Shown here: positions 4,399 through 38,540 of the stretch, in pieces | Layout: every line of letters begins with the position of its first letter | How positions within the stretch are numbered: position 1 is the stretch's first letter | Origin: Bacillota bacterium | Lineage (GTDB): Bacteria; Bacillota; Clostridia; Peptostreptococcales; Anaerovoracaceae | Direction of reading: 5' to 3' | NCBI GenBank assembly: GCA_017431785.1 | Contig: JAFRKJ010000032.1 | Coordinates: 1-64,000, forward strand | Length of the DNA: 64,000 bases | The notes under the pieces: model-generated | The model's database searches: none | What the model was told of the DNA's origin: nothing | The model's input: only the letters and a program-made list of their open reading frames with translations | Made by a program: the position numbers and the translations under genes

Positions 4399-4649
4399 AC
4401 TATGCTTTTTTTGCCGAAAAAGAATGAAAGAGCATAGTTCACAAGGAAAAGGCTATGCTTTTTTTGTTAAAATAGAACGAAAAGACATAGTTTACAAAGA
4501 AATAACTATGCTCCTTTTGCCGGAAAAGTGTAAAAGAGCATAGTCAACAGAGAAAAAACTATGCTTTTCCGGTGAAAATAGCGTAAAACGGCATAGTCCA
4601 AAGGGGAAAAATTATGCTCTTTTTGCCTAAAAGTGTAAAGCAGCATAGT
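4399..4649. repeat. 53-bp-period palindromic repeat array 1 (five units)
   Basis: Five units start at 4399, 4452, 4505, 4558 and 4611, exactly 53 bp apart. Each unit opens with (A/G)(C/T)TATGCT and closes about 40 bases later with (G/A)CATAGT. These arms pair with each other, and also across the 13-14-base linker (consensus CAAAGGAAAA) to the next unit. The inner parts are A/T-rich and related between units (TTTTTGCCGAAAA), so they are not CRISPR-like unique spacers. The array fills the whole gap between msrC and the next small gene. A second array of the same period and design lies at 31690-31992. Confidence 0.9.
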
Positions 4650-31689: not shown

Positions 31690-31992
31690 ACTATGCCGAA
31701 ATGGACGGTACGGGGAGAGAAAGTATAGTTTTCAGATGATTGACTATACCGAAACAGATGTTTTAGAGAAAAACAGCATAGTTTTCAAGGGCACAGCTAT
31801 ACCAAAATGGTCGTTTCAGAAAAAACGGTATAGTTTTCAAGGGTACAACTATACCAAAATGGTCGTTTTAGAAAAAGCGGTATAGTTTTCAAGGGTACAA
31901 CTATGCCGAAACGATCATTTAAGAAGGAAACGGTATAGTAATCAAAGGAAAAATAATACCGAAATGACAGTTTTAGATGAAAACAGCATAGT
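31690..31992. repeat. 53-bp-period palindromic repeat array 2 (six units)
   Basis: Six units start at 31690, 31743, 31796, 31848, 31900 and 31953, spaced 52-53 bp. Each opens with a form of ACTAT(G/A)CC and closes with CAGCATAGT or GGTATAGT. Linkers read TTTCAAGGGTACA or similar. Where the left arm is ACTATACC the right arm is usually GGTATAGT, so the arms change together. Design, period and linker match array 1 at 4399. It fills the space between the MATE gene and a lysine-rich mini-protein. Confidence 0.9.
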
Positions 31993-32012
31993 TCTAAAGA
32001 GGAATGCACATG

Positions 32013-32021
32013 TGGTATAAT
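32013..32021 (+). promoter_or_regulatory. Extended -10 promoter after array 2
   Basis: TGG-TATAAT, 30 bases before ATG 32052. It immediately follows the last repeat unit, so the array lies upstream of, or over, the promoter region. Confidence 0.55.
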
Positions 32022-32051
32022 ATACAAAACTATGAATTGGAGAGGCATGAG

Positions 32052-32210
32052 ATGAGTATTCTGAAAAAGCAAACATCTAAAAATACAAAGGCCCCTGCAA
32101 AGGCAACAAAGGTCAAGCCTGCGAAGGCGGAACCGCGCAAGGCAGCGAAACAGTCCAAGCTGAAGAAGGCGAAGAAGACCGTCGGCACAGGCGGATTCTG
32201 GGTGCTGTAA
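32052..32210 (+). CDS. Lysine/alanine-rich 52-aa protein
   Basis: 52 aa from ATG 32052 with GGAGAGG upstream. It is very basic (KAPAKATKVKPAKAEPRK), like the tails of histone H1-type proteins. The block KAEPRKAAKQSKLKKAKK is shared with the C terminus of the protein at 36284-36589. A role in nucleic-acid binding is an inference from charge. No known family. Confidence 0.6.
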   Translation: MSILKKQTSKNTKAPAKATKVKPAKAEPRKAAKQSKLKKAKKTVGTGGFWVL

Positions 32211-32592: not shown

Positions 32593-32619
32593 AAACTCCG
32601 GAGATACGGCTCCGGAGTT
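32593..32619 (-). terminator. Terminator of the toxin mRNA
   Basis: On the minus strand a stem CTCCGGAG-ccgtat-CTCCGGAG is followed by TTTTCT, 14 bases after the peptide stop. The 24 bases 32596-32619 recur exactly at 32877-32900, the terminator of the antisense RNA. Confidence 0.7.
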
Positions 32620-32632
32620 AATGGACTGGTTG

Positions 32633-32722
32633 CTACTTTAGAAATCGCTCCAGCCACTTGCAAATGCAGAAGGCAACTACACTTGCTGCGAGCGAAATCA
32701 GAAAAGCGGTTGACATATTCAT
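32633..32722 (-). CDS. 29-aa hydrophobic peptide, candidate type I toxin
   Basis: A minus-strand ORF reads MNMSTAFLISLAASVVAF, then CICKWLERFLK. One membrane helix is followed by a short basic tail, the layout of type I toxins such as Fst and the small Clostridium toxins. AAAGGAGGTGAGACT ends directly before the ATG, a very strong ribosome site. A promoter (32769-32797) and terminator (32593-32619) bracket it. The antisense RNA at 32839 would pair with its start region. These features together, more than the peptide alone, support the call. Confidence 0.7.
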   Translation of the reverse strand: MNMSTAFLISLAASVVAFCICKWLERFLK

Positions 32723-32768
32723 AGTCTCACCTCCTTTCTGTTGCCAGTCTGGATGTAGCAACAAGAAT

Positions 32769-32797
32769 ATATTACCTTAAATGGAAATTGTTTACAA
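32769..32797 (-). promoter_or_regulatory. Promoter of the toxin mRNA
   Basis: On the minus strand TTGTAA (32797-32792) and TAATAT (32774-32769) with a 17-base spacer. The start would be near 32762, giving a leader of about 40 bases. Confidence 0.55.
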
Positions 32798-32804
32798 CAT
32801 ATAG

Positions 32805-32832
32805 TTGACTTTTTTTCTTGCTTTGATATAAT
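32805..32832 (+). promoter_or_regulatory. Promoter of the antisense RNA
   Basis: TTGACT and TATAAT with a 16-base spacer, the best housekeeping-type promoter in the window. It is back to back with the toxin promoter; only 7 bases separate the two -35 boxes. Confidence 0.75.
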
Positions 32833-32838
32833 ACAAAT

Positions 32839-32908
32839 AGGCGAAAAGCGGTTGAGATCATAGTCTCACGAAACTTCTCCGGAGATACGGCTCCGGAGTT
32901 GTTTTTTT
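32839..32908 (+). ncRNA. Candidate antitoxin RNA (about 70 nt)
   Basis: The RNA would start near 32839 and end at a CTCCGGAG stem plus TTGTTTTTTT. It has no ORF. Bases 32843-32855 (GAAAAGCGGTTGA) and 32859-32869 (CATAGTCTCAC) are exact copies of plus-strand 32701-32713 and 32720-32730, which cover the start codon and part of the ribosome site of the minus-strand peptide. The RNA is therefore complementary to the toxin mRNA in two blocks of 13 and 11 bases and again across the terminator. Confidence 0.7.
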
Positions 32909-36164: not shown

Positions 36165-36287
36165 ATGTTGTTTGGATTAATGATAGTGGCATTTATCGTG
36201 GCACACCCGATTATAACGATATTGGGTGTTGTTGCCGTAAGCGCTTTAATGAACATCGGCGATATCTATAGGGAACTTATAAGTTGA
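36165..36287 (+). CDS. 40-aa membrane peptide
   Basis: MLFGLMIVAFIVAHPIITIL and a second hydrophobic stretch, ending DIYRELIS. A perfect AGGAGG is 10 bases before the ATG. Its TGA overlaps the TTG start of the next gene (TTGA), so the two are coupled. No family recognised. Confidence 0.65.
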   Translation: MLFGLMIVAFIVAHPIITILGVVAVSALMNIGDIYRELIS

Positions 36288-36589
36288 GCAGAGCATTCGT
36301 TACAGATAAAGAAGACTGGGTATATTGTGCAAAGGCAGGAGAGCGATGCATGCACGCGGAAGAAGGAAAAGTGTGCAGCGAGACCGACTGCGAGTTTTTT
36401 GATCGGGAGATTAAGACTCCGGTTCGCAGCACCAGCTCTGTTAAGGTTGTCAAGCGCAAGCCAAAGAATGCAAAAGCAACATTAGAGGCAAAAGCCGAAC
36501 CGCGAAGAGCGACGAAGAAATCCACTTTGAAGAAACCGAAGAAGTGGGGAGGACGGAGTGGAAGCAACTGCTATGGCAAATATAACTGA
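36284..36589 (+). CDS. Cys-containing, Lys-rich small protein
   Basis: 101 aa from TTG 36284. The first 45 residues hold four cysteines (YCAKAGERCMHAEEGKVCSE, TDCEF), a possible metal knuckle. The second half is very basic and shares KAEPRRATKKSTLKKPKK with the mini-protein at 32052. A nucleic-acid-binding role is possible. It is the last chromosomal-type gene before the A+T-rich defence island. Confidence 0.6.
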   Translation: MSRAFVTDKEDWVYCAKAGERCMHAEEGKVCSETDCEFFDREIKTPVRSTSSVKVVKRKPKNAKATLEAKAEPRRATKKSTLKKPKKWGGRSGSNCYGKYN

Positions 36590-36689: not shown

Positions 36690-38540
36690 CTATTTCCAAA
36701 TTTTAACTGCTATTTTTGCAAGTCGTTCTGCACGTTTCTCGACCTCCGTATGATTAAATTTCTTAGGGTGGTTACTAGTCAAATCTTTAATTAGCTCAAA
36801 AGTAGATTCCGGAATACTTTTATCACCACTTTGAGTTCCTTTTTTGTAGACTTTGAGCTTTTCCTTGTAATTGTTGTTGCTTGCAGACGAGTTTTCTGGA
36901 GTAAAGAGTAGGGCCTTGTTCCCAATCCTCTCGACAACTATCTCCTTGAAATCTGTTTTAATTTCGTCAGGTACAGATACTTTTCCATACCAAGATTGTA
37001 AGTCTGGCAAATCCTGAGGGATGATATGTTCAACAGAGAGACCTACTGGTACAGGATTGTTGTCTCCCGAGTTTGTCTTCCGCATATAGGTTTCCAGCTT
37101 CCTTAAATAATACTCGGACACTGTATTGTTTGAAGGTGCAAACTCAATAAAAGCGCTTTCAAATTCATTATTACTAACTAGTCGTTTTTTTTCATCAGCA
37201 ATCATTCTAGTGATTGTTTTTAATGGAGCCTTACCAGTCTTCATCTTTTCGATACATTTTTCAAAAATAGTATCAAGTCGATTAAAACTCTTATCACACA
37301 CCTGCATTCTAATGACAAGAGAAGTTAATGTGTCAAGAAATTCTTCAAAGTCTTTTCTTTCGTTTTGATTTGGATTTTTCTTATTAAGAATGCGTACTGT
37401 ATCATTCGGATATCGCTTACATACAGCAAAGATTAGCACAAAGACTTGATCCAAACTAAGACGACGTAAATCTTCAAGCCTTTTCTGTATAGGGTGTTTT
37501 GATTGTTCAACATTTTTCCTAAGTAAACCATATGTTTCTCCGTCTGCTTTTAGACTTTTGTAGAAGGAGGAAAAATCATCATGCGCACCATCATAATAGT
37601 ATTCTCTGAACTTGTTAGGTATTTCGGCCTTTGAGATACGTCCTTCGCCACCATCATAGAAGAAAAGAGATACAAAGAAATTCGTGAGATGCTTGTCGCC
37701 TACACCAGAAATAAACGAATCCCATTGTTGCTTTCCTTTTCCTCTTTCACTCCAATGCATGAAAATGTTTTTTATTCTATCGGCAGCAGTTAAATCGATA
37801 CCCTTTCCATTTAGCGAATCAAATACTTGGAAAGCGTCCATGGAAGAGGTACACTGTATTTCAACCAGTCGAACTTTATCGGTGAGAGTGCTTACTAATC
37901 TATTGTAGAAATCCAATTCGTTTAATGAGGGATTGTCTTCACAAAAGTCATCTTTCCGCTTTGCAATTTGAGATTCAAAAAACTGATAAGCAGCTTTTAT
38001 TCTTTTTGCTCCAACATATCTTTCATCACCCGTTTCTCCTTCGGGATCAATCTCTAAAATACTATTTGTATAATATTCACCAGTATTCTCATTGAGTATT
38101 AGTCGAGGTGCAGCAGCACCGGTCTTGAGGTGGATTTCACTATAACTACGCAGGACAGCATTCAATCTTCCACTCAAATTCTTTTGCATGTTTATATCTT
38201 TTGTTGAGGAATAGGTTTCTTCTTTGACTAAATCATCTAATGCACAGAAAAGAATTGAAAGTGAAGTGAGTCTCTGCTGCCCATCAACAACATGTTTGAC
38301 CTTCGCAGTATTTATTTGATAATCATCAAAGTCGATGACTTTTCCGGTTCCATTGTCTTCTTCGTAAGTTGTAGTTACAATTGCACCTATAAAATGTTCC
38401 TTACTATGGCCTTCCATTAGATTAAAAACATCATCTAACAGTACTCCATTTTCCTGATTTCGCCATGCATAATCACGTTGATAGTCTGGTATAGCATAAT
38501 AATAATTGCTAAATAAATCACTAATTCCTTTGAATTCCAT
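36690..38540 (-). CDS. DUF262/DUF1524 (GmrSD-like) nuclease
   Basis: 616 aa. The N-terminal DUF262 domain has IPDYQRDYAW and the VVDGQQRLTSLS motif (about residues 87-98). The C-terminal DUF1524 domain has SVEHIIPQDLP and GNKALLFTPENSSASNN (about 525-585), an HNH-like site. This is the single-chain arrangement of GmrSD-type modification-dependent defence nucleases. Its A+T-rich composition matches the rest of the island. It follows the vsr gene on the same strand by 54 bases, so the two are probably one transcript. Confidence 0.85.
   Translation of the reverse strand: MEFKGISDLFSNYYYAIPDYQRDYAWRNQENGVLLDDVFNLMEGHSKEHFIGAIVTTTYEEDNGTGKVIDFDDYQINTAKVKHVVDGQQRLTSLSILFCALDDLVKEETYSSTKDINMQKNLSGRLNAVLRSYSEIHLKTGAAAPRLILNENTGEYYTNSILEIDPEGETGDERYVGAKRIKAAYQFFESQIAKRKDDFCEDNPSLNELDFYNRLVSTLTDKVRLVEIQCTSSMDAFQVFDSLNGKGIDLTAADRIKNIFMHWSERGKGKQQWDSFISGVGDKHLTNFFVSLFFYDGGEGRISKAEIPNKFREYYYDGAHDDFSSFYKSLKADGETYGLLRKNVEQSKHPIQKRLEDLRRLSLDQVFVLIFAVCKRYPNDTVRILNKKNPNQNERKDFEEFLDTLTSLVIRMQVCDKSFNRLDTIFEKCIEKMKTGKAPLKTITRMIADEKKRLVSNNEFESAFIEFAPSNNTVSEYYLRKLETYMRKTNSGDNNPVPVGLSVEHIIPQDLPDLQSWYGKVSVPDEIKTDFKEIVVERIGNKALLFTPENSSASNNNYKEKLKVYKKGTQSGDKSIPESTFELIKDLTSNHPKKFNHTEVEKRAERLAKIAVKIWK

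What the first reader, a model, noticed from the sequence alone, without database searches (positions are those of the whole stretch)
32593..32908. Candidate type I toxin-antitoxin locus with a divergent antisense RNA
A 29-aa hydrophobic peptide (minus strand, 32633-32722) and a roughly 70-nt RNA (plus strand, 32839-32908) have back-to-back promoters 7 bases apart. The RNA repeats, as 13- and 11-base exact blocks, the plus-strand sequence over the peptide's start codon and the edge of its ribosome site; it also shares an identical 24-base terminator stem. It is therefore complementary to both ends of the toxin mRNA, as in the Fst/par system, but here in divergent orientation and acting in trans. 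I know of no described system with this exact layout.
Basis: partly seen in the sequence, partly recalled or inferred. Interest (0 to 1): 0.88.

Follow-up and report, generated by a model that had tools for sequence, protein, structure and literature searches.

The report
Rearranged Fst-type toxin–antisense RNA locus
A Clostridia genome carries a tiny membrane-peptide gene next to a small RNA that probably silences it; in related loci the two RNAs usually come from overlapping DNA, but here they come from separate DNA and stay matched through short repeats and a hairpin loop.

Summary
The locus is best read as a type I toxin-antitoxin module that works like Fst/par, with the antitoxin RNA unit moved from downstream (convergent, shared terminator) to upstream (divergent, own terminator). 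The peptide belongs to a wide Clostridia family that no curated model captured. Of 243 distinct relatives with both flanks, 172 score for the par-like convergent layout only, 20 for the divergent layout seen here, 4 for both and 47 for neither; two of the divergent ones are named isolate genomes. Repeat blocks differ between loci but match within them. Terminators were not used to pick the divergent loci: in the 17 of 20 where both hairpins were found, loops are identical (107 of 107 bases) while stems are 68% alike. So the loop is what is kept, as expected for loop-loop pairing in trans. A near relative has an empty site (2 bases against 333). Divergent type I modules are known in E. coli but pair in the 5' UTR; my searches found no divergent par-type module in print. 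Transcription and toxicity are untested. New variant of a known kind.

The parts
32633..32722 (-). toxin-like ORF, 29 aa, Fst-like hydrophobic peptide with ICKWLER motif
   Evidence: pN/pS-like ratio 0.37-0.39 over the family
32730..32735 (-). Shine-Dalgarno AGGAGG
   Evidence: sequence; seen in the alignment of divergent relatives
32594..32762 (-). predicted toxin mRNA (RNA I-like)
   Evidence: promoter and hairpin positions; fold z -5.0; ends are predictions
32769..32774 (-). toxin promoter -10 (TAATAT)
   Evidence: as aligned to relatives; the scan preferred a register 3 bases on
32792..32797 (-). toxin promoter -35 (TTGTAA)
32805..32810 (+). antitoxin promoter -35 (TTGACT)
32827..32832 (+). 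antitoxin promoter -10 (TATAAT, TG upstream)
32839..32908 (+). predicted antitoxin RNA (RNA II-like, about 70 nt)
   Evidence: like unit upstream in 20 divergent loci
32701..32713 (-). toxin copy of 13-nt repeat (DRb-like, codons 4-8)
32843..32855 (+). antitoxin copy of the 13-nt repeat
32719..32730 (-). toxin copy of 12-nt repeat (DRa-like, start codon and SD edge)
32858..32869 (+). antitoxin copy of the 12-nt repeat
32594..32619 (-). toxin mRNA terminator-like hairpin, loop CCGUAU
   Evidence: not called by the scan
32877..32900 (+). antitoxin RNA terminator hairpin, loop AUACGG (complement of the toxin loop)
32755..32765 (-). 5' arm of predicted long-range 5'-3' pairing of the toxin mRNA
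   Evidence: family test
32626..32636 (-). 3' arm of the same pairing
   Evidence: family test

Best explanation
A type I toxin-antitoxin cassette of about 330 bp that works like Fst/par but is permuted. Promoter P1 makes an mRNA for a 29-aa membrane peptide; back-to-back promoter P2 makes a roughly 70-nt RNA from separate DNA. That RNA finds the toxin mRNA in trans: complementary terminator loops meet first, then two repeat blocks pair over the Shine-Dalgarno edge, start codon and codons 4-8 and block ribosome binding. The toxin mRNA is also held closed by 5'-3' pairing. Shown here: the parts, their recurrence in relatives, matching within each locus, and loops kept while stems drift. Inferred: transcription, order of pairing, translational block, toxicity. 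The layout probably arose from the commoner convergent locus by head-to-tail duplication and loss of the outer toxin and outer antitoxin; this step is weaker.
For: Of 243 distinct instances with both flanks, 172 score 10 or more downstream only, 20 upstream only, 4 both, 47 neither; control 6 of 985. In 19 of the 20 divergent loci the copy lies 139-155 bases upstream of its toxin block, L236 at 130, within a search range of 116-175. Antitoxin promoters score 11-12 of 12 in 14 of 20, 7-9 in six. Loops are identical within the locus in 17 of 17 (107/107 nt), stems 150/222; between loci loops are 56% alike and identical in 14 of 272 comparisons. Cognate duplexes of the repeat part average -40.3 kcal/mol against -23.4 for other pairs; the cognate is best in 15 of 20, and in three of the other five (L086, L031, L257) the better or equal target is a locus with the same repeat. 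pN/pS-like ratio 0.37 over 3607 non-independent pairs, 0.39 over 29 divergent pairs. 5'-3' complement of 7 or more in 66 of 240 loci (12 of 20 divergent) against 29 of 720 (other locus) and 31 of 720 (shuffled). Origin: array of convergent units 328-339 bp apart (L159); L288 keeps an upstream unit reduced to 3' UTR, terminator and antitoxin-like part, by reading.
Against: No RNA or toxicity data. Weak toxin promoter and toxin-side T run. L094 and L236 lack a toxin-side terminator and L038's is mismatched. 47 of 243 instances score in neither place: 31 of these reach 8-9 downstream, 16 less (my count). One divergent locus (L158) also scores 9 downstream. The par YUNR U-turn is absent in the window. 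Cognate is not the best predicted target in 5 of 20, and L009 and L152 prefer other loci. In the L159 array the antitoxin would lie 173-186 bases before the next toxin, farther than in the divergent loci. The number of origins is open: parsimony gave 6 changes, but one clade is not rejected (p-AU 0.93).
Confidence: 0.82

Rival explanations
1. The peptide is not a toxin but a small membrane regulator, and the divergent RNA simply tunes its translation.
For: Toxicity is untested; no Pfam or NCBIfam model passes its cut-off for the proteins whose cut-offs were shown (weak matches); the window copy is beside a cation-efflux gene, and the five neighbours scanned show no mobile-element gene.
Against: Fst-like anatomy, par-like antisense in 172 of 243 relatives, tandem copies with private repeats, plasmid and viral-contig members, presence/absence at one site.
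Confidence: 0.12
2. Decayed or accidental remnant: the upstream unit is a leftover of a tandem duplication without present function.
For: L288 shows an upstream antitoxin-like remnant whose loop does not match the adjacent toxin; L094 and L236 lack the toxin-side terminator; L038 has a further orphan-like unit with no target found in a 67% complete genome.
Against: Loops, which played no part in picking the loci, are identical in 17 of 17 while stems drift, and promoters are kept.
Confidence: 0.05
3. The repeats are the ends of an inserting DNA element and the RNA similarity is a by-product.
For: Empty site of 2 bp against a 333-bp insert; 24-nt palindromes at both ends of the window cassette.
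Against: Ends are not shared between loci: stems and loops differ from locus to locus; blocks sit at the start codon; most relatives are convergent.
Confidence: 0.03

Closest known systems
par of pAD1 (Fst, RNA I / RNA II) and the Fst/Ldr superfamily
   Same: Small TM peptide with W before a charged tail; small antisense RNA; two repeat blocks over SD/start; complementary terminator loops; structured toxin mRNA (PMC7472228, its sections 2 and 4 and figure legends read).
   Different: par is convergent with one shared bidirectional terminator. Here the RNAs are divergent, share no DNA, and each has its own terminator. YUNR motif absent in the window. Fst model: no match for the window peptide, best relative 19.0 of 26 bits.
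Divergent E. coli type I modules: tisB/istR-1, shoB/ohsC, zor/orz, dinQ/agrB
   Same: Divergent, separately encoded antitoxin RNA (PMC4147584, passages).
   Different: Those pair with the long 5' UTR, not the translation start or coding sequence. Unrelated peptides (recalled).
C. difficile convergent type I modules (NCBIfam NF047374)
   Same: Clostridial small hydrophobic toxins with antisense RNA; 21 of 48 family peptides match the model weakly (best 6e-4).
   Different: Best 20.1 of 60 bits; 34-59 aa; the modules characterised in detail are described as convergent and overlapping in the sections read (PMC6563280).
Fst-like sequences reported in Clostridium bolteae and C. asparagiforme
   Same: Named in PMC6563280 (section read) as in-silico Ldr/Fst-like hits in Clostridia; may be members of this peptide family.
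   Different: Sequences and layouts not seen here, so not compared.

Membership tests
Fst/Ldr toxin superfamily | Conserved tryptophan between TM helix and charged C-terminus | tested here: met
   W in 48 of 48 aligned peptides, a set chosen by similarity; the window's tail ERFLK is short; TM helix judged from the sequence, not predicted by a tool
Fst/Ldr toxin superfamily | P/D/S/T-XXX-G(C) motif in the TM segment | tested here: inconclusive
   S or T at the first position in 42 of 48; G at the last in 14, S in 21; full motif in 13 of 48; window has SLAAS
Fst/Ldr toxin superfamily | Curated model NF033608 over its cut-off | tested here: not met
   No match for the window peptide; 3 of 48 members match at all, best E 9e-4, 19.0 of 26 bits; Pfam Ldr_toxin weakly in 5 of 48, best 0.026
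par (RNA I/RNA II) regulation | Two direct repeats giving antisense pairing over SD/start codon | tested here: met
   (sequence only; pairing not measured)
par (RNA I/RNA II) regulation | Convergent genes with one shared bidirectional terminator | tested here: not met
   Window and 19 relatives divergent; 172 of 243 relatives have the repeat in the convergent place
par (RNA I/RNA II) regulation | Complementary terminator loops | tested here: met
   17 of 17 divergent loci with both hairpins found, window included; 3 of 20 lacked one or both
par (RNA I/RNA II) regulation | YUNR U-turn in the RNA I loop | tested here: not met
   Absent in the window; RNA I loop 4 of 17, RNA II loop 1 of 17
Type I toxin-antitoxin | Toxicity relieved by an antisense RNA | not testable with these tools
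   needs expression tests
E. coli-type divergent modules (tisB/istR-1) | Pairing in the 5' UTR, away from the start codon | tested here: not met
   Blocks cover the start codon and codons 4-8, plus the terminator loop

The most novel reading that the evidence does not exclude
Par-type antisense control has been freed from overlap: in a permuted class of Clostridia loci, terminator loops and two short blocks alone keep a separately encoded antitoxin matched to its toxin mRNA, and the 330-bp cassette comes and goes as a unit, so that tandem arrays can spin off new, mutually blind toxin-antitoxin pairs.
Probability: 0.45. Interest if true: 0.72.

Novelty: new variant of a known kind. Interest (0 to 1): 0.6.

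Why it matters
In convergent par loci loop complementarity is automatic because both RNAs are read from the same terminator, so its conservation says nothing about need. The divergent loci break that tie: stems drift, loops do not. This is natural evidence that the loop-loop contact matters, and it points to loci in named isolates of gut bacteria (Eubacterium ramulus, Fusicatenibacter saccharivorans) in which the contacts can be tested one at a time. It also brings out a wide family of Fst-like peptides in Clostridia that no curated model captured in these scans.

Tried and rejected
Tried without result: Rfam (no match in the window), Pfam and NCBIfam for the window peptide, solved structures (two weak photosystem I hits, E 1.3 and 3), Fst model in the own genome (no match; the same search rang in 9 of 14 control genomes, over the cut-off in 1). 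The single peptide against phages gave 4 records, all E 0.5 or worse.

Rejected: an orphan antitoxin in G263 (96% copy), because the match ends where the fetched stretch ends, apparently at a contig end. A target for the extra antitoxin-like unit upstream of L038 was sought with one 16-base pattern (2 mismatches) and not found, in a genome 67% complete. Multiple independent origins of the divergent layout: suggested by the quick tree, not upheld, since one clade is not rejected and the tree with them held together scored 113 log units better. L049, L222 and L298 (score 10 or more on both sides) look like chance second matches on reading; L013 has an upstream copy of part of its 3' region only.

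Limits: the loci are not a random sample (best-scoring hits first, window genus oversampled), so 20 of 243 is not a prevalence. Alignment A1 holds 48 peptides chosen from the 70 loci then in hand; fragments, broken frames and repeats were left out. From 327 loci, 344 instances scored 35 bits or more, 259 were distinct, 243 had both flanks. Several of the 17 loop cases are close relatives (L001/L086; L152, L153, L158 and L257 share one loop); by my count 13 different loops are present. Of the 34 viral and plasmid loci (35 instances, some plainly the same sequence), 29 instances are convergent, 0 divergent, 6 undecided; the 27 viral loci were also part. Seven of 14 plasmid records were opened; PLSDB gene tables are incomplete.

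Full report
1. Observation. The peptide is MNMSTAFLISLAASVVAFCICKWLERFLK at 32633-32722 on the minus strand. The exact repeats are 13, 12 (not 11) and 24 bases long and stand in the same order in the toxin region and in the plus-strand RNA. The two -35 hexamers are 7 bases apart. The plus-strand promoter is close to consensus; the minus-strand one is weaker; the toxin-side hairpin has a short T run and was not called by the scan, and the scans as such are not significant. Both predicted RNAs fold better than every one of 200 shuffles.

2. Family. The window's genome is an 81% complete assembly in which the peptide occurs once. The peptide matches in 57 of 296 genomes of the family at E 0.1 or better (weak hits included), in 16 of 49 of the genus with a profile at E 0.1 (13 at 1e-4 by my count), in 27 of 297 of the order at E 1e-4 (22 of the 27 in the window's own family) and in 56 of 299 of the family of the E. 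ramulus genome at E 1e-12. Record titles include Lachnospiraceae, Oscillospiraceae, Erysipelotrichaceae and, by recalled taxonomy, Negativicutes (Phascolarctobacterium, Veillonella, Anaerovibrio). There are 27 viral contigs and 14 plasmid records at E 10 or better, seven of them Ligilactobacillus salivarius. In the seven plasmid stretches opened, no listed feature lies over the match, and all seven score 52 bits or more with the family profile.

3. Layout. For each peptide I compared the start-codon region with 60-base-wide offset ranges downstream (convergent place), upstream (divergent place) and elsewhere (control). Among 243 distinct instances with both flanks, 172 score 10 or more downstream only, 20 upstream only, 4 both, 47 neither; the control reaches 10 in 6 of 985. 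Of the 47, 31 reach 8-9 downstream. Most of the family sampled is therefore arranged like par. Window-like loci are L001 (window), L002, L006, L009, L018, L031, L032, L033, L038, L072, L076, L086, L094, L108, L152, L153, L158, L236, L257 and L295. Eleven lie in the window's genus, two in one other genome of its family (G101), seven elsewhere; L152 and L236 share a genome. By record title L153 is Eubacterium ramulus strain 21 and L158 Fusicatenibacter saccharivorans D41t1, which argues against an assembly artefact. Both layouts occur in the window's genus (L007 of G224 and L070 of G127 are convergent).

4. What is conserved. The blocks differ between loci but match within each; since loci were picked by that match, it is no separate test. 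Antitoxin promoters score 11-12 of 12 in 14 of 20 loci and 7-9 in six (the Lachnospiraceae-type group); toxin promoters score 8-12. The independent result concerns the terminators. Choosing the best hairpin on each side separately, in fixed ranges, both were found in 17 of 20 divergent loci. Loops are identical in all 17 (107 of 107 bases, best overlap within two positions), stems in 150 of 222 positions; between loci, by the same procedure, loops are 56% and stems 51% alike, and 14 of 272 loop pairs are identical. In the other three, L038 shows the same loop bases by eye with a mismatched toxin-side stem, and L094 and L236 lack the toxin-side terminator. Several of the 17 are related, so they are not 17 independent cases; 13 different loops are present by my count. 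The window itself, with its identical 24-base hairpin, is one of the least diverged.

5. Mechanism. In par, pairing starts at the terminator loops and spreads to DRa and DRb, blocking ribosome binding (PMC7472228, sections and legends read). By analogy the plus-strand RNA should meet the toxin mRNA loop to loop and then cover the start. Cognate duplexes of the repeat part average -40.3 kcal/mol against -23.4 for other pairs; the cognate is the best target in 15 of 20; L086, L031 and L257 prefer or tie with a locus bearing the same repeat, L152 a related locus, L009 one of another clade. The toxin mRNA is predicted to be closed by 5'-3' pairing; complements of 7 or more occur in 66 of 240 loci against 29 of 720 (other locus) and 31 of 720 (shuffled). 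The par U-turn motif is absent in the window and found in 5 of 17 loci. The ORF looks constrained (ratio 0.37 over 3607 non-independent pairs, 0.39 over 29 divergent pairs; uncorrected). Transcription, order of pairing and toxicity are inferred.

6. Origin and mobility. A MAG (L159) has four scored convergent units head to tail, 328-339 bp apart, which puts one unit's antitoxin block 173-186 bases before the next toxin's, somewhat farther than the 130-155 of the divergent loci. L288 keeps an upstream unit reduced, on reading, to 3' UTR, terminator and antitoxin-like part. Losing the outer halves of such an array would give the divergent cassette with its doubled terminator. How often this happened is open: 6 changes by parsimony on a quick tree, but one clade is not rejected (p-AU 0.93) and that tree scored better. 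At the window's site, G299 has the cassette and G268 has 2 bases instead of 333 between the same flanks, both with a 99% identical neighbour protein; the window shares the toxin-side flank, not the other. In viral and plasmid loci 29 of 35 instances are convergent, none divergent, 6 undecided.

7. Known systems. The peptides have the Fst/Ldr tryptophan (48 of 48) and a partial SXXXG motif (13 of 48); the Fst model reaches 19.0 of 26 bits in the best relative and misses the window peptide. I therefore say it works like Fst/par and leave formal membership open. Fst-like hits in Clostridium bolteae and C. asparagiforme are mentioned in PMC6563280 (section read), so parts of the peptide family may have been seen before. 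Divergent type I modules are known in E. coli, pairing in the 5' UTR (PMC4147584, passages), and in Salmonella (TimP/TimR; PMC8167048, passage). The latter review says that most Gram-positive type I modules overlap at their 3' ends. Searches of the open library for a divergent par-type module gave none that I recognised in the listings or in the passages and sections named here; PMC8309996 was searched for five words and the two passages returned held nothing on it. Subscription papers are not held, so this is no proof of absence; the older surveys of Fst-like loci were not read.

8. Verdict. A real, recurring and probably working type I module; new variant of a known kind. Its chief value is that separate terminators make the loop-loop contact visible in natural sequence.

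Noticed in passing
window 4399-4649 and 31760-31993: Two arrays of 52-53-bp repeats, about 4 copies each, whose units hold inverted halves by eye (such as ACTATGC...GCATAGT).
   Followed up: no
window 36690-38540 (-): GmrSD-type modification-dependent restriction enzyme (Pfam GmrSD_N and GmrSD_C) about 4 kb from the TA locus.
   Followed up: no
window 32004-32210 and 36284-36589 (+): Two ORFs with alike Lys/Ala-rich tails (KAEPRKAAKQSKLKKAKK and KAEPRRATKKSTLKKPKK); whether they are genes was not tested.
   Followed up: no
L288 (oriented, about -290 to -100 from the toxin start): Upstream antitoxin-like unit with a terminator loop that does not match the adjacent toxin: perhaps an antitoxin left without its toxin.
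   Followed up: partly
L038, upstream of the divergent antitoxin: A second antitoxin-like unit in the same direction; no other match to its block in the 67% complete genome.
   Followed up: partly
L330, 1160-1500: The empty site in G268 holds repeats around AGTGCTAG/CTAGCACT next to where the TA cassette sits in G299.
   Followed up: no
L159 (G512 contig 94): Head-to-tail array of convergent units, four scored, each with its own repeat sequence.
   Followed up: partly
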